A stretch of DNA of 64,000 bases from Trichobilharzia szidati (taxonomy: Eukaryota > Platyhelminthes > Trematoda > Strigeidida > Schistosomatidae): NCBI GenBank assembly GCA_944472155.2, contig OX235271.1, forward strand, positions 120,099,329 through 120,163,328, given 5' to 3'. Of this stretch, positions 7,903-58,690 are shown piece by piece. The first letter of the stretch is position 1. Each line of letters begins with the position of its first letter. The translations under genes and the position numbers were made by a program. Below the pieces are notes generated by a model. That model was given only the letters and a program-made list of their open reading frames with translations. It did not search any database and was not told the DNA's origin.

Positions 7903-8471
7903 TTGTGTTCTCTGAGCTGGTTGGTTGAATCGCGGAGCTTTCGTCGTCCTTCTGGACAACATCTTCAGCACAACTTTTAGCATAAAGTAAACTGATTTAA
8001 ATTCTCCATGAATCATAGAATTGCGTCTCCTGGTGACCATCTTCGTGACTGGCAGTCGATTTACATCTGTACTGATCATTTTTTATAGACTTGGATTTTG
8101 AACTTTCTAGTCACATGGTTTACTTTTTATTATTTGGTATATTTGGTCTATATTAACATATTTGTTAATCGCATATTCGCCTGAGTACCAGGCTTCTAGG
8201 AATTCTCCGGCACTTGATGTTTCCTCTGTTTAAAATTTCGACATTATCCCAATCATGTGACGAGAAAGTTCAAAATCCAAGTCTATAAAAAATGATCAGT
8301 ACAGATGTAAATCGACTACCAGTCACGAAGATGGTCACCAGGAGACGCAGTTCTATGATTCATGGAGAATTTAAATCAGTTCACTTTATGCTAAAACTTG
8401 CGCTGAAGATGTTGCTTAGAAGTGGGACGACGTGAGCTTCGCAATTCAACCAACTAGCTCAAAGAACACAA
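7903..8471. repeat. Inverted repeat, ~215-bp arms around a ~136-bp spacer
   Basis: The left arm (7903-8117) and right arm (8254-8471) are reverse complements with scattered mismatches and a net 3-bp length difference. Each arm, read outward from the centre, contains the same reading frame start (MISTDVNRLPVTKMVTRRR), so the two copies are head to head with their distal ends outward. The sequence (a GAAGATGTTG block, then an A/G-rich block and a CAATTCAACCAAC block) is a dispersed-repeat type rather than a host gene. I cannot name the family. Confidence 0.75.
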
Positions 8472-11103: not shown

Positions 11104-11454
11104 TGTAGCGGTAAATAATTCCCCAAAATTATTAACCACAGCAATCATCACTCAACATTGGATGCTGACCATCACTGTTTAAGTCGACTTGTTTAGCTGA
11201 AGGCTTACGGTCAAGCATCCCCGCCATTTGGTGCTCCGTCGTGTCACGTGCGTGCACGATTACTAGCTAGCTAAGCATTCATTCCTACCCGCGATTTGGT
11301 CCCAAAATATATATCGTATTTGGACGACAAAATCTGGTCTTTTGCTTTACCATTTGGTACTCGAAGAACGAACACTATAGTGGTTGTTGGTATAAGATCT
11401 TGCGTTAGTATAATCCGTACAACTCGCGAACGTTCGATACCTACATCACCTAAA
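11104..11454 (+). repeat. 5' LTR
   Basis: 351 bp, starting TGTAGCGG and ending ACATCACCTAAA. It was delimited by alignment with the 3' LTR and by the ACTT duplication just outside. By eye it matches the 3' LTR with no differences. The right end lacks the usual CA dinucleotide, so the boundary is fixed by the target duplication rather than by an inverted TG/CA terminus. A reading frame of 91 codons that spans its end is incidental. Confidence 0.93.
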
Positions 11455-15971: not shown

Positions 15972-16322
15972 TGTAGCGGTAAATAATTCCCCAAAATTAT
16001 TAACCACAGCAATCATCACTCAACATTGGATGCTGACCATCACTGTTTAAGTCGACTTGTTTAGCTGAAGGCTTACGGTCAAGCATCCCCGCCATTTGGT
16101 GCTCCGTCGTGTCACGTGCGTGCACGATTACTAGCTAGCTAAGCATTCATTCCTACCCGCGATTTGGTCCCAAAATATATATCGTATTTGGACGACAAAA
16201 TCTGGTCTTTTGCTTTACCATTTGGTACTCGAAGAACGAACACTATAGTGGTTGTTGGTATAAGATCTTGCGTTAGTATAATCCGTACAACTCGCGAACG
16301 TTCGATACCTACATCACCTAAA
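15972..16322 (+). repeat. 3' LTR
   Basis: 351 bp, matching the 5' LTR base for base as far as I can compare by eye, and followed by ACTT (16323-16326), which repeats the four bases before the 5' LTR. Confidence 0.93.
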
Positions 16323-22560: not shown

Positions 22561-23084
22561 ATAGAGAGAAGATCAGTAGTTCAGCGAAGAGTCTTTTTTC
22601 GGCGAATTCATTTTCACAACTGTACAGTCGCAAATACATATGGTTATTTTGTATGTGTGTGTACATTGAATTTGTCAAACAAAAATACAATTAGTAAGTT
22701 TTTTGGTAGAGTTACGTAATATAAAAAGCTTTCAAAGGAATTGGATGTTGATATGAGAGGGTAGTAACAAAAGTGGTGAGTTATCACAAACGATTGTTAA
22801 TGAAGAGTTACGTAATAACATGAATAGTTTGATGAAAGAGTTGTGCTCAGGATGAACATGGAAACAAAATAAAATGCGGAATTACGTAAGTGTTTTAAGT
22901 ATTTAGAAAAAACAAAAAACAACCAAAAGTTAAGTCAAATCAACAGAGTTGTTACCATGATAGTAGTGGCTGAATAATTTTCTTTTTTATGCATAGTTTT
23001 GGTTCTTCTAACTAAAAGCCTTTTGCATTACGTAACTCTACCAAAAACCTTACTAATTGTATTTTCTTTTAATTGGATTTTAGA

Positions 23085-23327
23085 TTTTTCTGTCGATTGA
23101 TTGAACCGAAGTGCTCAGTCTGAGGTTGACATGTCGGCTTCTTGTGCAGATGCTTCACCGATGTTTGGGCATTTAATTAGTATTTAATTGGTGGATGGTG
23201 ACTAGGAGTGGAATCCAGGATGCGCATTTCGTCCTATTTAGGACTCGTCATATGGATGTACCTGCATTTCTCAGTGAGTGATGATCTTCCCATCGAGGCT
23301 CGAACCCAGTGCCCATAGTTTCAAACT
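23085..23327 (-). repeat. Sm-alpha-like hammerhead SINE copy, left palindrome arm and spacer
   Basis: Mirror copy of the right-arm SINE, with its ribozyme region at 23,204-23,264 on the minus strand and the same C3 loss. Unlike the right arm, it keeps part of the tRNA-like head. In the palindrome spacer the minus strand reads TTGAAACTATGGGCACTGGGTTCGAGCC, which includes a pol III B box (GGTTCGAGCC). This asymmetry shows that the left copy is the more complete one and that the right arm was copied from it. Confidence 0.75.
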
Positions 23328-23330
23328 CCA

Positions 23331-23530
23331 TCATCACTCACTGAGAAATGCAGGTACATCCATATGACGAGTCCTAAATAGGACGAAATGCGCATCCTGG
23401 ATTCCACTCCTAGTCACCATCCACCAATTAAATACTAATTAAATGCCCAAACATCGGTGAAGCATCTGCACAAGAAGCCGACATGTCAACCTCAGACTGA
23501 GCACTTCGGTTCAATCAATCGACAGAAAAA
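23331..23530 (+). repeat. Sm-alpha-like hammerhead SINE copy, right palindrome arm (mutated core)
   Basis: 23,351-23,411 reads like the known schistosome Sm-alpha hammerhead: a stem I strand CAGGTACATCCA, stem II GTCC-TAAATA-GGAC, GAAA, then CCTGGATTCCACTC as the stem I partner. The catalytic box, consensus CTGATGA, is ATGACGA here, so C3 is lost and the usual GUC cleavage triplet is ATC. I predict no self-cleavage. The tail follows with GACATGTCAACCTCAGACTG. This arm lacks the tRNA-like head. Confidence 0.8.
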
Positions 23531-24054
23531 TCTAAAATCCAATTAAAAGAAAATACAATTAGTAAGGTTTTTGGTAGAGTTACGTAATGCAAAAGGCTTT
23601 TAGTTAGAAGAACCAAAACTATGCATAAAAAAGAAAATTATTCAGCCACTACTATCATGGTAACAACTCTGTTGATTTGACTTAACTTTTGGTTGTTTTT
23701 TGTTTTTTCTAAATACTTAAAACACTTACGTAATTCCGCATTTTATTTTGTTTCCATGTTCATCCTGAGCACAACTCTTTCATCAAACTATTCATGTTAT
23801 TACGTAACTCTTCATTAACAATCGTTTGTGATAACTCACCACTTTTGTTACTACCCTCTCATATCAACATCCAATTCCTTTGAAAGCTTTTTATATTACG
23901 TAACTCTACCAAAAAACTTACTAATTGTATTTTTGTTTGACAAATTCAATGTACACACACATACAAAATAACCATATGTATTTGCGACTGTACAGTTGTG
24001 AAAATGAATTCGCCGAAAAAAGACTCTTCGCTGAACTACTAGTCTTCTCTCTAT

Positions 24055-25928: not shown

Positions 25929-26344
25929 GAATTCAGTCTGCACCGAAGATAGGACTAGACACATTACACTAGTTACTGACTAGTGTGCAATCAAAAATAT
26001 CCAATACAGTCCTACAGGAGGTCAGTCGCGAGCCTGAATAGCTCAGTGGTAACGTCTCTGACTGCAGCACTGGGTGACGCGGGTTCGAATCTCAGAAGGG
26101 ACATCAGTTCCTTCAAGGTTGCAGATACGCCTTGCTGATGAGTGCCAACTAGCACGAAACCTAGGTCCAAGGCTTCCTGCCGATTGCCTCCAACCATCTA
26201 ATACCAACAGTTCACAGTGCACCGTAATGGCGAGCCACCTAGCATGGTGGCCACATTGCAAACATGACTGATAGAATTCAGTCTGCACCGAAGATAGGAC
26301 TAGACACATTACACTAGTTACTGACTAGTGTGCAATCAAAAATA
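25929..26344 (+). repeat. Hammerhead-bearing tRNA-derived SINE in partial tandem (345-bp period)
   Basis: The 71-bp segment 25,929-25,999 (GAATTCAGTCTGCACC... to AATCAAAAATA) is repeated at 26,274-26,344, offset exactly 345 bp. Between the copies lie a leader, a tRNA-like head, a hammerhead and a tail, so the locus is 1.2 units of a 345-bp tandem repeat. Head: A box TAGCTCAGTGGTAAC (26,038-26,052) and B box GGTTCGAATC (26,090-26,099), an internal pol III promoter. I see no full tRNA cloverleaf. Related copies are at 35,398-35,695, 41,528-41,869 and 54,641-54,967. Small open frames here are fortuitous. Confidence 0.88.
26121..26180 (+). ncRNA. Type I hammerhead self-cleaving ribozyme (canonical core)
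   Basis: All conserved hammerhead parts are present in order. Stem I outer GCAG/CTGC (26,121-124/26,177-180) and inner GCCTTG/CAAGGC (26,129-134/26,168-173) with an internal loop ATAC opposite TTC. Then CTGATGA (26,135-141), stem II GTGC/GCAC with loop CAACTA, GAAA (26,156-159), stem III ACC-TA-GGT, and cleavage after GTC at 26,167. The loop 2 sequence and the UAC/UUC internal loop resemble the tertiary-contact loops of the known schistosome hammerhead (CAAAUA loop). Stem III is very short, as in Sm-alpha. On family knowledge I expect self-cleavage, possibly helped by dimeric transcripts. This is an inference from pairing, not a measured activity. Confidence 0.88.
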
Positions 26345-29184
26345 AAGGAAACACATTTCTGGTAAAGTTAGTCTGAGTGACAGATATGATTTCTATCACT
26401 CATCACCTTTTCTTTATTTATGATACGATAATATTATCGCATTAATACATTGTCACTAAAGATCATATTTCATAGTAAATAGATTTATTTTGCGTAACTT
26501 TATACATTGTTTTACATAAATAAAGGTTACATTTGATATTGATGTAGGGAGAGACAAAGGTTCCATGTAGGTATTTAAAAAGAAATGTCTGAACAACATT
26601 TTTCCTGAATGAGAAATTGGATCTAATCCATTACTGAATAATGCAAAGAAAGGTATGATATACTCATTTAAGGAAACACTGATGTCATATATATATATAT
26701 ATAAATAATATATATTATATATATATATATATATAATATATTTTAGTTAGCAACCTTGTTATTTTTGTAACGATAAGCCAGATAGTTGTAGAGAATATAG
26801 ATTATGTTTAACAGTGAGATCTCATCCTTTTCCGACGCAACACTGCATTGAAAATGAATTGCTGGTATCACAGGTGTAATATCCAAGGTTATGACACTGT
26901 TAACACGCCTTATATTAGACATATAGGGCTTAAGCGATGGTAAATCCAAACAAATTTTGCGATTGTTTTTGCACCTGCTGTCGTAATAATTTTTTGTTAT
27001 AACGGAGCTCCTACATAGCTCTCAAGATCATTTTTCATCACGGATTGATTTGAAATGCAGAACCATTATGTATCAAGAAGCACGAAGTAGTTGTTATGTT
27101 CAGGTCAATTCAGTGGTACCAGTCCGCGGTTCTATATGGCATTCCGTCAGGTACTCTGCTGACAACCGTTACGTTTCTCAGCTTGCCGTTTAAATGAAAT
27201 TCAATAAAAGTAATGATGTATGGAATAGTTTATTATTTTTCCTATTGATGTCATCATTCATATTTCACTCTGAACAGACTTAGTGTAGCACCTGTAAAGG
27301 TAGTACACATGCACACATTGAAATTTTAGGAAGAGATTGAATTTACCTACATCTAGCGACTATCAATACATTCATAGTCAAATCTGATACACTTCAACCT
27401 ACTAGTGTTTAACATGTAACATCTAGTTAATTCACGACTTGGTATGTAAAAAATTATGTTTCCATGTATGACTTGAAATACAAAACATTTTGAAGCCATA
27501 AATCTAAATTTTTATTATGATTTATTGGTTCACATGAATGGCTACCATTGAACAGACATCAAAGAATTATTCGACATTTGTTGTTAAGTTGAGCACAAGC
27601 CTTCTATTAATCCCTGTGATCGTCATCTAGTCCATTAATTATGTAATGATAGTAATATTGTCGTAGTGATCTCAACTTGAATTAAGTCCTACTGTAATTA
27701 TAATGACTAGATGTCTATTTTCGGCACGTGACATTGCAATTGTTACAAAATAGACTGAACAAATGGTTCGACGGCTATCAAAAAGAAAGTCAAACTAATT
27801 TGGCGTCAAAATTTTCAACTCAGCAACTATAACAGATGACTAGTATAACTAAAATTACTGATCTTCTTACTGTTGCAAATGCATTCATGTTTCCTTTCGT
27901 ATGGAAAGGGCGTAGAATTACATGAGAAAAGTCAAATGAGAGGATTGTTTTCAGCTTTCCACTTTACAGAGTAGCAATATATCTTATTTAATAGTGAAGG
28001 GATAATTTGTGGTTAATATTGTTAATCGAAAGTTAAAGTAGAGATCAGTGTATCTGAGCATGACAGAGTGAGAAAGAAGGAAAGAGAGGGTGAAGGGTCC
28101 ACTTTATGAAATAATAATCGCTTAGTGATATGAGACTAAACCTATCAATTTCTTTTATTACTACTAGTATAATTAAATCAGACAATGGGACATGAAGTCA
28201 ACAAAATGTTTACTTACTGTAGGTCACTAAAAAGACTTGATAACTCTAGAGTTAGTTTTTCCACCATACACTGAGACTATTTGGAAAACTACAGAAAATT
28301 CGGATTTGTTGGACATCTGCCTAGTCTAATTACACAATTAATCATGAGTGAACATTTAGGAAATTCCTAATTGTGGGGGATTTTTCAGTCGTTTTACATC
28401 AAGAAATTAGTTATGTTCTGTCATTTTTTAAGTCATACTGACCAGGTTTCATTTTGAAAGAATTCTGTCACAAGTTTATGTTTCTTCTTAATAATTTGTA
28501 TGTCTTAGGAATCAGTCAGCAGGAAGGTTTGTTTGACTTGGTTTACAAGCTAGCTGGCATTCAGTATCAAGGTGTACCTATAAGTTTGAAAAAAGTTCTT
28601 GTTTACTGGGCGATTCCAAATTGCGTGGCTCATTGCCAAAGTTAGATAATTTGTCAATAAAAATATTTCTATCACGATTAATGCTTTTTTGGATGAATGA
28701 TTACACGAATTAGCTGTCTGATGCTAACTTTTCTAAACACTTAGAACTAAACAAATACATTGATTATCACTTTCAATTTGTATATAGTTATTACCGTTCT
28801 ACCACAGTTATCCATCATTTGTTATTGTAGCTATGGATTTACTTATATCTCAACATTTGATTTTTGGAGAAAAGAGGGAGGTTTCAGCACTGAAGAGTTC
28901 AATCAATACTTGCTTGTAAAATCTTTAATCAAGCTGAAAACTAAGAATTTTCACAATCCAACACCGTATCCGGTGACTTCGAAAATTCATTCGATAATCA
29001 CCATAAAAATCTAATCAAGTAATTCCTGAAATCAGATAGGTGACTGTTGGAAAAATTCTATGTCCGTCATGTATTTGAGAAACTTATTTCACCTAAGAAT
29101 TTTACATTTCATTTAAGTGGAGCAAATATAGTGCAATATCTATGTCCCCAGATTGCTTTTTACTTTAGCGCGATTATTTTTATT

Positions 29185-34699: not shown

Positions 34700-35397
34700 A
34701 ACAGCTGTTTTAAAAATATTTGTTTATTGCGGAAAAGACTCTCATATCCGGACAAATCGCCTGTTCCTCATTTCACTCATAAAATAACTTACTTCTATAG
34801 AATACTGACTTCATTAGATAATTACTTCCCTATAGGATAAAAACCCAAGGGCATATGTTTTCCTTTTTGTGTTTTCTATTTGAACAATAAAAACAATTTC
34901 GCTAACTGACTAATTAATTAATTAGCTTGCAACTAGAACTATTATTATTGTGTTTTTTTATGTCTCGTTTTCCCATGTGATTAAGACAACAACAATATTT
35001 TTGTTGCTAGGCCTGTGAACTGATAGACGTGTGGAGTGGAGAAGTAAATAATCAGCATATGCCTGGTAGTGTTCTATCAATGAAATGCACTAAATGTTTT
35101 ACTATTTTTTTTAATGAATAAGACAGTGTGACTTTTACTGATAGTAAAGATAATTAAAATAACAAATTAATACATCATAGTAACAGTGAGAATAAACGCC
35201 TTATTGTCAACGGATTACAATGAAAATTCATTATAAATTAATATTAAACTATGCATAGAACTGCAGGCTTGCTAAACTACACCTGGTTGATATTTGTCAT
35301 ATTCTGTCGTCATTTGAATTAACTCCTGTATACACCGTAGGATGTACACGGAGGAATCATTGTGTTCCCTTCGACTTTGACTTCATTCATCTTATGT
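34700..35397. other. AT-rich DNA without recognised gene
   Basis: Nothing recognised between the solo LTR and the SINE copy. A TTAATTAATTA run occurs near 34,912-34,922. Confidence 0.5.
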
Positions 35398-35695
35398 GGT
35401 TGGAGGCAATCGACAGGAAACCTTCCCTGACCTAGGTTTCGTTCTAGTTGGCAATCACCACTCAGCAAGGCGTATTTGTAACCTTCAAGGAACTGATGTC
35501 TTTTCTGGGATTCGAACCCGCACCACCTAGTGAGTACTGCAGTCAGAGGTGTTACCACGGCGCTATTCGGGCTGGCGATTGACCTCCTGTAGGACTGTAT
35601 TGGGTATTTTTTTGACTGGACACTAGTCAGTAACTAGTGGGATGTGTCTAGTCCTTTTTTGGTGCAGACTGAATTCTATCAGTCAGGTTTGACCA
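35398..35695 (-). repeat. Hammerhead SINE copy, minus strand, ribozyme core interrupted
   Basis: On the minus strand the order is tail (GAATTCAGTCTGCACC... AGTCAAAAAAATA), leader (CAATACAGTCCTACAGGAGG), tRNA-like head with B box GGTTCGAATCCC, then hammerhead region and GATTGCCTCCAACC. The order tail-leader-head repeats the tandem junction of the 25,929 locus. The catalytic box reads CTGA-GTGG-TGA, that is CTGATGA with four bases inserted. Stem II is also mismatched (ATTGCC...AGAACG). I predict loss of cleavage. Confidence 0.82.
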
Positions 35696-36634: not shown

Positions 36635-36790
36635 GAGAGTGATATTGGGTTCGAACCCCGGTGGGTGCGTACTGATGGTGATGAAGAGTCCCAAACTAGG
36701 ACGAAATAGCTGTCCAGTACTGCCTTCATGTTTTCCAATGGTTTTCTAACCGATGTCAGCTCAATCAGATCCCTACAAGCCCATACTACA
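36635..36790 (+). repeat. SINE of a second hammerhead-bearing family
   Basis: B box GGTTCGAACCCC (36,649-36,660), then GTACTGATGGTGATGA, stem II GTCC-CAAACTA-GGAC, GAAA, and GCTGTC followed by CAGTAC. CAGTAC pairs with GTACTG, so stem I, stem II and GAAA can be recognised, but extra bases lie between TGATGA and stem II and within the stem I/core junction, so the core is not canonical. The tail has AACCGATGTCAGCTCA. The same family lies on the minus strand at 58,567-58,690. Confidence 0.7.
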
Positions 36791-38989: not shown

Positions 38990-39955
38990 GAAGAAGCTTT
39001 AAGAAGACCTTCTTCGCAGCTGAACTACGACTAACCTTCTCCACAAAACCTATGATTCATGTGAACGTGAAGGATAAGCTACCGCTGCTGGCCTCATCAA
39101 TGTGCATTTATCAATTCACCTGCTCGTGTGGAGCCAGGTATGTCGGCCGTACCCAGCGCTCGCTTTCCAAACGTATCACCGAGCACTTACCAGCATGGTT
39201 TTACAAAGGAGAAAATCGATGCCCCCGCAGTTCCATCTTAGAACATCTGATAGAATCCGGACACCAAGCTACACCGCAAACAAACTTCAATGTCGTCTAC
39301 AGAGTAAGAAGTGGTCTCCCTAAAGGTGTACGAATCAGACTTCTTCAAACTGCAGAAGCAATGGCGATTCACTTGCTAAGTCCTGAACTCTGCATACAGA
39401 AGAAGTTCGTTCAATCACTACACTTGCAATGGACGTAATCTATCCTATTAGCCGACGTGTAAATTCTACCTAATCTTTTCTTCTGTCTCTTCATTAGTAT
39501 TATTATTTTGTCTTCTCAATTGTAACATTTTACATTTTCAATTTTCTTGTTCTCTACCCCCACCCGATTCAATCTCTACACCCCACTACCACTGTTACTG
39601 ACTTGAACAACGCTCAGTTTCTAGTCATTCATGTTACGTCATCCAACTTATTCACTCAATTTCACTTCTACTTAATCTCTACCTGTAATTACCTCTGTTG
39701 CTATCCTGACCTAAGTTGTAACATTTTAGCCAATTATATTACGTCATCTAGTTTTTTAACTCAGTCTTACTTTAGTTGCTGTCTGATTAACTTTGTCTCT
39801 ATACTACATCATTCTTGTATTAACTAATCAATTATCTAAACTTGACAAACCTCATGTACACACACACACAAATATTTATATATAAATGCGATTGTACAGC
39901 TATGTGAATGAATTCGCCGAAAAGAGTCTCTTCGCTGAATGTCTTCTCTTTCTTA
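38990..39955 (+). mobile_element. 5'-truncated Penelope-like element (endonuclease plus 3' UTR)
   Basis: Contains the PLE GIY-YIG endonuclease frame (39,052-39,438), a pyrimidine-rich 3' UTR, a CA microsatellite near 39,858-39,870 and the terminal box (GCGATTGTACAGCT, AATTCGCCGAAAAGAGTC, TCTTCGCTGAA) ending near 39,955. The reverse transcriptase domain is missing, so the copy is truncated. The same terminal box ends the PLE fragments at 24,045 and 53,915, which ties those tails to this protein. Confidence 0.88.
39052..39438 (+). pseudogene. GIY-YIG endonuclease domain of a Penelope-like retroelement (fragment)
   Basis: 128 codons, and the frame stays open upstream past 38,998 without a start (it encodes FSTKP just before the ATG), so this is a fragment of a longer protein. 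Motifs: CIY (18-20, GIY-like), CSC (24-26), YVG (30-32, YIG-like), R37 and EH (44-45), SSILEHLIESGH (60-71), and the catalytic-type glutamate in TAEAMAI (E102). The Cys-rich insert between GIY and YIG is typical of PLE endonucleases. The domain nicks target DNA to prime reverse transcription. Without its RT partner it is not expected to function. Confidence 0.85.
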
Positions 39956-41105: not shown

Positions 41106-41527
41106 TGAAAGGTCAAGAATAAACAGGTTTAATCAAATAATGTTCAACAGAGAGTAGAACATTCAGAAAAATATACTCCAAGTACCATTTAACCATGGGA
41201 AAGAAATTACGTCAGACAACTAAGTGGATTAAATTCCAAAGGAAACTAATAATTATAATTACGGAGTAACGAAATGGCACACAAAATACAAACTCGTACT
41301 ACTTGCTAATAATAAGTAGTATAAGGTTAAACACTAATGAAACAGTAATAAAGAATAAATAAATAAAAAATAATTGACATTGACATTTAATCAACGTGTT
41401 CTTTTGAATATATCGTAGATTTGATCCATTCTTTGATGCACATTAAATCTTGGGTTCTGGGGTAGTTTGTAAGAATTGATAGAGGTATTTTATTTAATAG
41501 TTGCAATTTTATCTGCGTATATTCGAT

Positions 41528-41869
41528 GGCTGCAGGTAATCGGCAGGAAGTTTTGAACCTAGATTTCGTGATGGTTGGCGATCACCAGTCAGCAAGGCGT
41601 ATCTCCAACCTCGAAGGAACTCATGTCCCTTCTGAAATTCGAACCTGCGTCACCCAGTGTTCCAGTGAGAGACGTTGTCATTGAGCTATTCGGGCTCTCG
41701 ATTACCGATTGCATCCAACTATCTAATATCAACAGTTCAAAGTGCACCATGATGGTGAGACACCTAGAATACTGATCACATTGCAAACTTGACTGATAGT
41801 ATTCAGTCTGCACCAAAGAGGGGCCTAGACACATTACATTAGTTACTAACTAGTGTCCAATCAAAATTA
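41528..41869. repeat. Hammerhead SINE with inverted head, copy 1
   Basis: 41,528-41,700 is the tRNA head plus hammerhead region on the minus strand (GGTAATCGGCAGGAAG..., B box reverse complement AATTCGAACC at 41,636-41,645). 41,705-41,869 is the tail on the plus strand (AACAGTTCAAAGTGCACC, TTCAGTCTGCACC, ACTAGTGTCCAATCAAAA). The head is therefore flipped relative to the 25,929 copy. The core box reads CTGA-CTGG-TGA with a four-base insertion, and stem II is mutated, so it is predicted inactive. Confidence 0.82.
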
Positions 41870-53919: not shown

Positions 53920-54635
53920 CTTTCTAATATCCTAATGAGTACTTCCCACGATCTCAAAATGAGATGTCAATCAGATCGATAAGCGAATACATACGGTATC
54001 GAAATTTTGTAGGTTAATCACTGCGAAAATTTAATTAAGAGGCAATAAAATCAGATACTGGTAACGAGGTGGGTGAAGAATATACACCCATTTGAAATGA
54101 AAATAACCTAATTCATTAACTCTGTGTAGTCGTAAAAGTAGCCAACATTGAAAACCAGTGCTATTTGCAACGGCTCGAACTGCACATTTATTGTAAGACA
54201 TTTGCAAATGCATTGTGATAATATGATGTTGCTTAGATGGAAGTTATCAAACATCTTATCTGTCACCTCATCCATAAGTTGACTGTATCAGTAAAAATCA
54301 AGTGATCAAACCATGACAATGTTGACTAGAATAACGAGCGGGTAGATTGACTGCCGTGTTAATAACAGTCGTTATCGAATCCTGTTTATGGAAAATATAT
54401 TGGGCATAACAAAGCATGGCGGAGGAAACTTCTGCCTTAAGAAATGTATAAAATAGTATATTCTTTTTTATATAATTTTTCGTGGCGCATATCGAAATAC
54501 TAAATTCCGCGTTATGTGAGCTGGATAGTTCAGTTAATAAGTTTACAATATTTTCGCAGACAAACAAAAAATACACCGGAATTCAAATTTTCTCATCTGC
54601 TTCAAAGTTTCACTCCTATTTATACATATAGGAGA
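53920..54635. other. AT-rich DNA without recognised gene
   Basis: No feature recognised between the PLE tail and the next SINE. Confidence 0.5.
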
Positions 54636-54640
54636 TGGCT

Positions 54641-54967
54641 GGAGGCAATCGGCAGGAAGCCTTGAACCGTGCTAATTGGCACTCACCAGTCAGAAAGGCG
54701 TATCTGCAACCTCGAAGGAACTCATGTCCCTTCTGAAATTCGAACCTGCATCACCCAGTGTTCCAGTGAGAGACGTTGTCACTGAGCCATTCGGGCTCTC
54801 GATTATCGATTGCCTCCAACTATCTAATATCAACAGTTCAAAGTGCACCATGATGACAAGGCACCTAGAATACTGATCACATTGCAAACTTGACTGATAG
54901 TATTCAGTCTGCCCCAAACAAAGGACTGAATGCATTACATTAGTTACTAACTAGTGTCCAATCAAAG
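54641..54967. repeat. Hammerhead SINE with inverted head, copy 2
   Basis: The architecture is the same as at 41,528: the head and ribozyme lie on the minus strand (54,641-54,805), and after the GATTGCCTCC junction (54,808-54,817) the tail lies on the plus strand to ~54,967. The junction is flanked by short inverted similarity (GGAGGCAATCGG at 54,641, CGATTGCCTCC at 54,807). The ribozyme has CTGA-CTGG-TGA and has lost GAAA and most of stem III (GCAC runs into GGTTCAAGG), so it is dead. It shares diagnostic changes with copy 1. Confidence 0.83.
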
Positions 54968-58566: not shown

Positions 58567-58690
58567 GTTACAGGATTTCATCATGAGCTGACATCGGTTG
58601 GAGAACCACTGGAAAACCTGGGAGTACTGGACAGCCGTTTCGTCTCAGTTTGGGACTCTTCATCAGTAACAATTTTTAGACAAAGAAATA
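58567..58690 (-). repeat. SINE fragment of the second hammerhead family, minus strand
   Basis: The minus strand reads TTACTGATGAAGAGTCCC, AAACTGAGAC, GAAACGGCTGTCCAGTACTC, then TTTTCCAGTGGTTCTCCAACC and GATGTCAGCTCATGA. It corresponds to the 36,635 copy from the hammerhead onward; the tRNA head is missing. Stem II is mismatched and extra bases follow CTGATGA, so it is predicted inactive. Confidence 0.68.

What the first reader, a model, noticed from the sequence alone, without database searches (positions are those of the whole stretch)
26121..26180. Complete hammerhead ribozyme fold inside a SINE
Every catalytic box (CTGATGA, GAAA, GTC cleavage triplet) and all three stems can be drawn without exception, and stem I has an outer 4-bp extension with an internal UAC/UUC loop facing a six-base CAACUA loop 2, the layout that gives natural hammerheads their tertiary contact. 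Its stem sequences differ from the well-known Sm-alpha hammerhead also present here at 23.35 kb, so it appears to be a separate ribozyme family in the same genome. Cleavage is predicted between 26,167 and 26,168.
Basis: partly seen in the sequence, partly recalled or inferred. Interest (0 to 1): 0.8.

Follow-up and report, generated by a model that had tools for sequence, protein, structure and literature searches.

The report
Intact hammerhead ribozyme in fluke SINE
A short mobile element in a blood-fluke genome carries a complete RNA-cutting motif (a hammerhead ribozyme) that should cleave its own transcript; it looks like a young, intact copy of an abundant family, of a kind already known from schistosomes.

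Summary
A strict descriptor finds only this site in 361 kb of this genome and nothing in 150 randomised windows. The host is Trichobilharzia-like.

The ribozyme sits 36 nt behind a pol III B box in copy A (25,929-26,344) of an abundant dispersed family. Copies are pieces of a head-to-tail ~345-nt unit; A spans 1.2 units, hence its identical 71-nt ends. The four window copies tested have 11-16-nt target-site duplications. A is 2.8% from the leave-one-out consensus, 19 others 7.7-38%. Of 22 profile hits spanning the ribozyme only A passes the strict test.

The Sm-alpha-type hammerheads at 23.2-23.4 kb score higher but carry a C3-to-A core change. A's family is distinct from them, probably distantly related, and resembles Sm-alpha, S. 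mansoni W-elements and metazoan retrozymes: a new member of a known kind. Cleavage is predicted, not shown; a role in mobility is inferred.

The parts
25929..26344 (+). Element copy A: 1.2 head-to-tail units (R-J-head-HHR-T2-TAIL-R)
   Evidence: 71-nt perfect direct repeats, spacing 345; flanking 13-nt target-site duplication with 1 mismatch, 2 of 400 random pairs as good; same unit order in other copies
25929..25999 (+). R, left copy of the 71-nt terminal repeat
   Evidence: identical to 26274-26344 (71 of 71)
26000..26025 (+). J, short linker upstream of the promoter
   Evidence: R-to-J junction present in 10 of 28 BLAST rows
26039..26049 (+). Pol III A box TAGCTCAGTGG
   Evidence: the only A/B-box pair at 30-60 nt spacing in the window under the pattern used, 0 in 60 Markov windows
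26082..26092 (+). Pol III B box GGTTCGAATCT
26121..26180 (+). Extended type I hammerhead ribozyme with outer stem I and internal loop AUAC/UUC
26129..26173 (+). Hammerhead core matched by RF00163
   Evidence: 43.4 bits, E 8.7e-8
26165..26168 (+). GUC cleavage triplet and predicted cleavage site between 26167 and 26168
   Evidence: cleavage itself not tested
26174..26203 (+). T2: 3' end of many other copies (...GATTGCCTCCAACCATCTAATA)
   Evidence: 12 of the 20 BLAST rows that hold ribozyme sequence end here, unit 542-558
26204..26273 (+). TAIL, second part of the unit
   Evidence: T2-to-TAIL-to-R continuous in 7 of 28 rows
26274..26344 (+). R, right copy of the 71-nt terminal repeat
35397..35691 (-). 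Copy B: TAIL(end)-R-J-head-HHR-T2, ribozyme broken
   Evidence: 11-nt TSD, 7 of 400 random pairs as good
41520..41869 (-). Copy C: 5'-inverted T2-TAIL-R followed by head-HHR-T2, ribozyme broken
   Evidence: 12-nt TSD, 5 of 400
54633..54966 (-). Copy D: same inverted form as C (89% identical), GAAA box deleted
   Evidence: 16-nt TSD, 0 of 400

Best explanation
Copy A is a young-looking insertion of an abundant pol III-promoter, Sm-alpha-like SINE / metazoan-retrozyme-type element in a Trichobilharzia-like blood-fluke genome, and it carries a complete type I hammerhead. SHOWN by sequence: the full fold; A and B boxes; a head-to-tail ~345-nt unit; target-site duplications on the four window copies tested, which point to target-primed reverse transcription; and A's closeness to the family consensus. 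INFERRED, strong: a transcript containing 26121-26180 self-cleaves between 26167 and 26168, leaving a 2',3'-cyclic phosphate and a 5'-OH. INFERRED, about even odds: in head-to-tail multimeric transcripts successive hammerheads cut out ~345-nt monomers that host ligase closes into circles. Reverse transcription of multimers or circles by a LINE enzyme would then explain copies that run past the unit end, as A does. A alone has one hammerhead, so its own transcript would be cut in two and could not release a unit circle.
For: Rfam 43.4 bits. Strict descriptor: 1 in 361,001 bases, 0 in 150 random windows. Across 10 of the 15 threshold-level hammerheads then in hand, from three families of this genome, 8 of 12 pairs change on both sides and 92.5% of cells stay paired; 0 of 500 shuffles reach either value. 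A/B boxes. Unit order: R-to-J in 10 and T2-TAIL-R in 7 of 28 rows; a second direct copy longer than one unit at L025:7569-7989. TSDs on the four window copies tested. A is 2.8% from the leave-one-out consensus against 7.7-38% for the 19 other rows with over 90 aligned bases, and its two 71-nt repeats are identical. Strand-specific folding of the unit.
Against: No cleavage, transcript or circular RNA was tested. 21 of 22 profile hits spanning the ribozyme fail the strict test, and the majority consensus itself reads an insertion-type, non-canonical core. C and D share a broken core and an inverted layout at two sites, so mobility does not need cis-cleavage in that lineage. 12 of 20 ribozyme-bearing rows share one 3' end (T2), which suits a linear RNA better than a randomly opened circle. 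The 60-mer does not fold unusually well (z -1.3). No tandem array with two or more intact ribozymes was seen in 361 kb.
Confidence: 0.7

Rival explanations
1. The ribozyme is chemically competent but a passenger: the element is an ordinary LINE-dependent SINE, tandem units arise at the DNA level (satellite-like arrays, as for S. mansoni W-elements), and self-cleavage is neutral or even limits mobility. (This shares all but the circle step of the best explanation, so the two confidences overlap.)
For: Broken-core copies are widespread, and the C/D form moved with a broken core. A common 3' end (T2, 12 of 20 rows) and TSDs are ordinary SINE features. W-element families with hammerheads occur as W-chromosome satellites plus autosomal copies (PMC8490949, sections 7 and 11 and passages seen).
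Against: The youngest-looking copy keeps the intact ribozyme, so a recent source element probably kept it. The stems covary across families.
Confidence: 0.4
2. The hammerhead is a chance or decayed look-alike without activity.
For: Minimal stem III; 60-mer z only -1.3; relatives broken.
Against: 0 of 150 random windows match the descriptor; Rfam E 8.7e-8; every core base present; covariation with other families.
Confidence: 0.05
3. A is a reverted copy: the family's ribozyme was dead (insertion in the core) and A lost the insertion by chance.
For: 11 of 22 spanning hits carry an insertion in or next to the core (counted by eye on the alignment), and the majority consensus shows an insertion-type core.
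Against: Insertion-free copies also occur at diverged loci (L020:9322-9396 and L006:9310-9473 keep CTGATGA; also L006:3278-3404 and L020:8987-9167). A has intact stems, GAAA and GUC as well.
Confidence: 0.06
4. The 71-nt direct repeats are LTR-like ends, i.e. A is a plant-type LTR retrozyme or a Penelope-like element.
For: Perfect terminal repeats; a GIY-YIG-type ORF elsewhere in the window.
Against: The hammerhead lies outside the repeats and is type I; there is a pol III box pair; other copies show the repeat is one segment of a head-to-tail unit.
Confidence: 0.04

Closest known systems
Sm-alpha / Sj-alpha SINE-like elements of Schistosoma (S. mansoni W36.2, 333-335 bp)
   Same: SINE-like element with a type I hammerhead, unit of similar length, very high copy number. 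PMC2770079 (passages) reports about 38,500 hammerhead candidates in S. mansoni and tRNA-Gln-like copies related to Sm-alpha.
   Different: Different element sequence and stems; an Sm-alpha-type element (label recalled) is present separately at 23.2-23.4 kb here. Published Sm-alpha sequences could not be compared directly.
S. mansoni W-element families W25.2 (415-428 bp), W26.2, W27.2
   Same: Hammerhead-bearing repeat families beside Sm-alpha, also dispersed on autosomes; 3 of 5 tested candidates (variants of W25.2 and W36.2) cleaved in vitro; direct repeats and a possible TSD noted for one W25.2 element (PMC8490949). Copy A is 416 nt long.
   Different: Their sequences are not in the text held, so orthology with the 26.1-kb family is untested.
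Metazoan non-LTR retrozymes (Cervera and de la Pena 2020)
   Same: Type I hammerhead, 150-450 bp repeat unit, GC below 50%, TSDs longer than 4 bp, strongly self-paired RNA (PMC7229834, parts 1 and 2 of 6 read).
   Different: Here pol III boxes are evident and pieces of up to 1.3 units are what was seen; GC 49.3% is above the <45% of that paper's Figure 1 legend; circular RNA is untested. 'SINE' and 'RNA polymerase III' do not occur in that paper's main text.
HH9 (RF02275), recalled as an intronic hammerhead of amniotes
   Same: Same extended layout (outer stem I, UAC internal loop, CCAA..AG loop 2); 46.2 bits.
   Different: Below HH9's gathering score of 52; here it is a fluke repeat.

Membership tests
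Type I hammerhead ribozyme (RF00163) | CUGANGA, GAAA and NUH cleavage triplet | tested here: met
Type I hammerhead ribozyme (RF00163) | Three stems with stem I open-ended, score above the gathering threshold | tested here: met
   43.4 against 34 bits
Type I hammerhead ribozyme (RF00163) | Stem I internal loop facing loop 2 (tertiary contact) | tested here: inconclusive
   Right elements present, AUAC/UUC and CAACUA, same layout as HH9; the contact itself was not modelled
Type I hammerhead ribozyme (RF00163) | Site-specific self-cleavage | not testable with these tools
   needs in vitro transcription
Hammerhead_HH9 (RF02275) | Score above the family's gathering threshold | tested here: not met
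   46.2 against 52 bits
Sm-alpha-type hammerhead SINE | Pol III A and B boxes upstream of a type I hammerhead | tested here: met
Sm-alpha-type hammerhead SINE | Sequence homology outside the ribozyme | tested here: inconclusive
   A against the 23.3-kb element without the ribozyme: score 81, 13 of 1000 shuffles as high; profile cross-hit E 2.5e-4 includes the ribozyme; published Sm-alpha not compared
Sm-alpha-type hammerhead SINE | tRNA-derived head | tested here: inconclusive
   Boxes present, but neither ARAGORN nor the Rfam tRNA model (E up to 10) reports it
Metazoan non-LTR retrozyme | Tandem unit of 150-450 bp with a type I hammerhead | tested here: inconclusive
   345-nt head-to-tail unit; two direct copies longer than one unit, A and L025:7569-7989, but no array of two or more full units seen in 361 kb
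Metazoan non-LTR retrozyme | GC content below 50%, TSDs longer than 4 bp | tested here: met
   49.3% GC (above the <45% of the paper's Figure 1); TSDs 11-16 nt on four copies
Metazoan non-LTR retrozyme | Expressed as circular RNA | not testable with these tools
   no RNA data
Plant LTR retrozyme / Penelope-like element | Ribozyme inside the terminal repeats | tested here: not met
   Hammerhead at 26129-26173, repeats at 25929-25999 and 26274-26344

The most novel reading that the evidence does not exclude
This is a retrozyme driven by an internal pol III promoter, still recently active in a Trichobilharzia-like blood fluke: intact source elements make multimeric transcripts that their hammerheads cut into ~345-nt circles, while daughter lineages with an insertion in the core lose the ribozyme and go on spreading as ordinary, often 5'-inverted, SINEs.
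Probability: 0.3. Interest if true: 0.6.

Novelty: new member of a known kind. Interest (0 to 1): 0.4.

Why it matters
Animal type I hammerheads have a proposed role in mobile-element life cycles. This family offers a natural comparison: a young-looking copy with an intact ribozyme beside many dispersed copies with a broken one, in one genome. Genome-wide counts of intact against broken copies by age would show whether the ribozyme helps, hinders or does nothing for spread. It also puts hammerhead-bearing SINE-like repeats in a Trichobilharzia-like genome; two searches of the held library gave no report on that genus (0 papers, from 2022: nothing among the 15 of 66 listed). And 20 of the 21 Rfam-threshold hits in 361 kb fail my strict descriptor, so counts by model score alone may overstate active ribozymes; failing it does not prove inactivity.

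Tried and rejected
Whole-genome counts of intact and broken cores: of 36 genome-search searches were answered 'busy' and one ran (plain DNA query, 0 candidates; the tool says common words are skipped, so no evidence of rarity). The intact-core pattern was tried 22 times, the insertion pattern once, all busy. I took position-chosen stretches instead. Viral contigs and prokaryote genome contigs were scanned for element words: 0 and 0, as expected for a fluke.

Idea not settled: that 5' ends of template pieces cluster at the cleavage site (unit position 168/169). In one search five rows start at unit 165-191 (C, D, two in L006, L018), but C and D look like one event, the profile extends one L006 piece to model position 119, and others start at about 81-139.

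Idea not settled: that broken-core copies end at T2 while intact ones run on. It held for the four window copies, but L025:7569-7989 and L020:9322-9511 run on and are broken.

Folding of the 60-mer: uninformative. Among ten control tiles (one, at 26 kb, is the element itself, z -7.0) one lies on an inverted repeat (-23.6) and another reached -3.8, so the unit's -5.7 counts mainly through the strand contrast.

Reading the 36.7- and 58.6-kb hammerheads as Penelope-type was dropped: several relatives have a tRNA-like B-box stretch just upstream (by eye). A relaxed descriptor gave two weak hits in 217 kb, judged spurious by eye. The 'extra' column printed does not measure the insertion; the count of 11 of 22 is by eye.

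Full report
WHAT IS THERE. The sequence at 26121-26180 (+) is a complete type I hammerhead: stem I GCCUUG/CAAGGC, core CUGAUGA, stem II GUGC/GCAC with loop CAACUA, GAAA, a minimal stem III, GUC, then an internal loop AUAC/UUC and an outer 4-bp helix GCAG/CUGC. Rfam Hammerhead_1 gives 43.4 bits (E 8.7e-8, gathering score 34). With permissive filters the extended motif fits Hammerhead_HH9 better (46.2 bits), but below that family's own threshold of 52.

IS IT CHANCE? A strict descriptor matches only this site on both strands of the window and nothing in 150 Markov-1 windows. Over the window plus 30 other stretches (361,001 bases) it still matches only here. I aligned 10 hammerheads of three families of this genome, 10 of the 15 threshold-level hits then in hand (left out: the mirror copy at 23213, L017:8051, L020:4076, L021:4165 and L022:3549). 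They keep 92.5% of cells paired and 8 of 12 pairs change on both sides; 0 of 500 shuffles reach either value, and sliding the partners drops pairing to 20-40%. Five of six stem I pairs change on both sides; the closing pair does not, and is unpaired in the three Sm-alpha-type rows. The set was chosen by model score, so it leans towards the structure. The isolated 60-mer does not fold better than shuffles (z -1.3).

WHOSE GENOME. The window is a 64-kb piece of contig C1 (217 Mb) of a 1.11-Gb assembly. An exon-like ORF has a single database hit, Trichobilharzia regenti, 83% identical. A GIY-YIG-type ORF, probably of a mobile element, is 81% identical to a T. regenti protein and 51-65% to the named Heterobilharzia and Schistosoma hits. 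So the host is a schistosomatid close to, but probably not, T. regenti.

THE ELEMENT. An A box (26039-26049) and B box (26082-26092) precede the ribozyme; under the pattern used this is the only such pair in the window, and 60 Markov windows have none. Neither ARAGORN nor the Rfam tRNA model sees a tRNA, so 'tRNA-derived' rests on the boxes. Copy A (25929-26344) is bounded by two identical 71-nt repeats, 345 nt apart. Three more clear copies lie in the window: B (35397-35691, -), C (41520-41869) and D (54633-54966), plus a weak profile hit at 28508-28647. A to D have target-site duplications of 13, 11, 12 and 16 nt with one mismatch each; random place pairs did as well in 2, 7, 5 and 0 of 400 trials. 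That points to target-primed reverse transcription. TSDs were not tested in the other stretches.

THE UNIT. Comparing 28 BLAST rows in the window and 30 stretches with a doubled unit shows one order: R-J-head-HHR-T2-TAIL-R. The R-to-J junction occurs in 10 rows, T2-TAIL-R in 7, and a second copy longer than one unit, 72.5% identical, lies at L025:7569-7989. The 71-nt repeats of A are therefore best read not as LTRs or a target duplication but as a sign that A was copied from a head-to-tail template. Of the 20 rows that hold ribozyme sequence, 12 end at T2 (unit 542-558), about 30-45 nt past the cleavage site.

WHY A IS SPECIAL. The family profile gives 28 hits at E below 1e-3 in 361 kb, which would scale to roughly 86,000 hits in the genome, some elements giving more than one (inference; the sample is small). 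Of 22 hits that span the ribozyme (one, L024:1913-2051, is an Sm-alpha-type element), only A passes the strict test; L020:2232-2422 keeps CTGATGA and GAAA but has a long loop 2 and a mismatch in stem III. Eleven of the 22 carry an insertion in or next to the core (by eye); an insertion after A6 gave low activity in PMC3088659 (section 8 read). A is 2.8% from the leave-one-out consensus; the 19 other rows with over 90 aligned bases are 7.7-38% away. Against this, the majority consensus has an insertion-type core; A differs from its leave-one-out consensus by 4 gap columns. With the identical 71-nt repeats, A is the youngest-looking copy, so a recent source element probably had an intact ribozyme (inference). 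Copies C and D, 89% identical and at separate sites with separate TSDs, share both an inverted layout and a broken core, so that form spread without a working ribozyme.

OTHER HAMMERHEADS. The Sm-alpha-type pair at 23213-23257 (-) and 23358-23402 (+) scores 60.2 bits, but its core reads AUGACGA and the stem I closing pair is lost. They sit in a 725-bp inverted repeat, arms 99.7% identical. A third family (36.7 and 58.6 kb) makes up 10 of the 17 sites shown. In the 297 kb outside the window Rfam reports 17 Hammerhead_1 hits (4, 7 and 6); the only one that overlaps a family-profile hit is the Sm-alpha-type L024 site. So 20 of 21 threshold hits in 361 kb fail the strict descriptor.

HOW IT PROBABLY WORKS. 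Pol III (inferred) transcribes the element; the hammerhead cuts the RNA at 26167/26168. From A itself this gives two fragments. From multimeric transcripts it would give ~345-nt monomers that host ligase could circularise, as reported for metazoan retrozymes (PMC7229834: coral circles in the parts read, other animals and tRNA ligase in its abstract). Reverse transcription of multimers or circles would explain copies that run past the unit end. The unit's + strand folds far better than shuffles (z -5.7; circular z -4.4), its reverse complement does not (z -1.1), as expected if structure matters in the RNA. Against a necessary role: the common T2 end and the spread of broken copies. I rate the ribozyme's activity as very likely, and its role in making circles at about even odds.

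WHAT IS KNOWN. [quoted passage not shown] S. mansoni has four hammerhead-bearing W-element families; 3 of 5 tested candidates, variants of W25.2 and W36.2, cleaved in vitro (PMC8490949, sections 7 and 11 and passages). W25.2 (415-428 bp) is a tempting counterpart of the 416-nt copy A, but its sequence is not in the held text. Two library searches found no report for Trichobilharzia (0 papers; nothing among the 15 of 66 listed). I therefore file it as a new member of a known kind.

Noticed in passing
22561-23285 and 23330-24054: A 725-bp inverted repeat, arms 99.7% identical, 44 nt apart, carrying the two Sm-alpha-type hammerheads, both with the same C3-to-A core change; could be a real palindrome or an assembly effect.
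   Followed up: partly
23213/23358; L020:4076/4363; L022:3191/3549; L023:6120/6553 and 7105/7264: All five pairs of Rfam-threshold hammerhead hits lying within 500 bp of each other point away from each other (- then +), and the 8 oppositely oriented composites of the 26.1-kb family have the same 5'-to-5' polarity. Twin priming fits C and D; it does not obviously explain a near-perfect 725-bp palindrome.
   Followed up: partly
36678-36720 (+) and 58624-58669 (-): A third hammerhead family, 10 of 17 sites, several copies with a tRNA-like B-box stretch just upstream; core AUGAAGA in 4 of the 10, while L020:4363 and L010:7889 keep C3 but have lost the G of GAAA (by eye).
   Followed up: partly
11104-11454 and 15972-16322: Two identical 351-bp direct repeats (100%) flanking long ORFs: probably a recently inserted LTR retrotransposon.
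   Followed up: no
7903-8120 and 8251-8471: Inverted repeat of about 220 bp, 91% identical; a weak MIR8007 hit (36 bits, threshold 195) lies on it.
   Followed up: no
38992-39435 (+): GIY-YIG-type ORF by one relative's name, probably of a Penelope-like element (recalled); no Pfam hit.
   Followed up: partly
L030:4868-10000: Part of the rRNA gene cluster (SSU pieces, 5.8S, LSU); its spacers could name the species.
   Followed up: no
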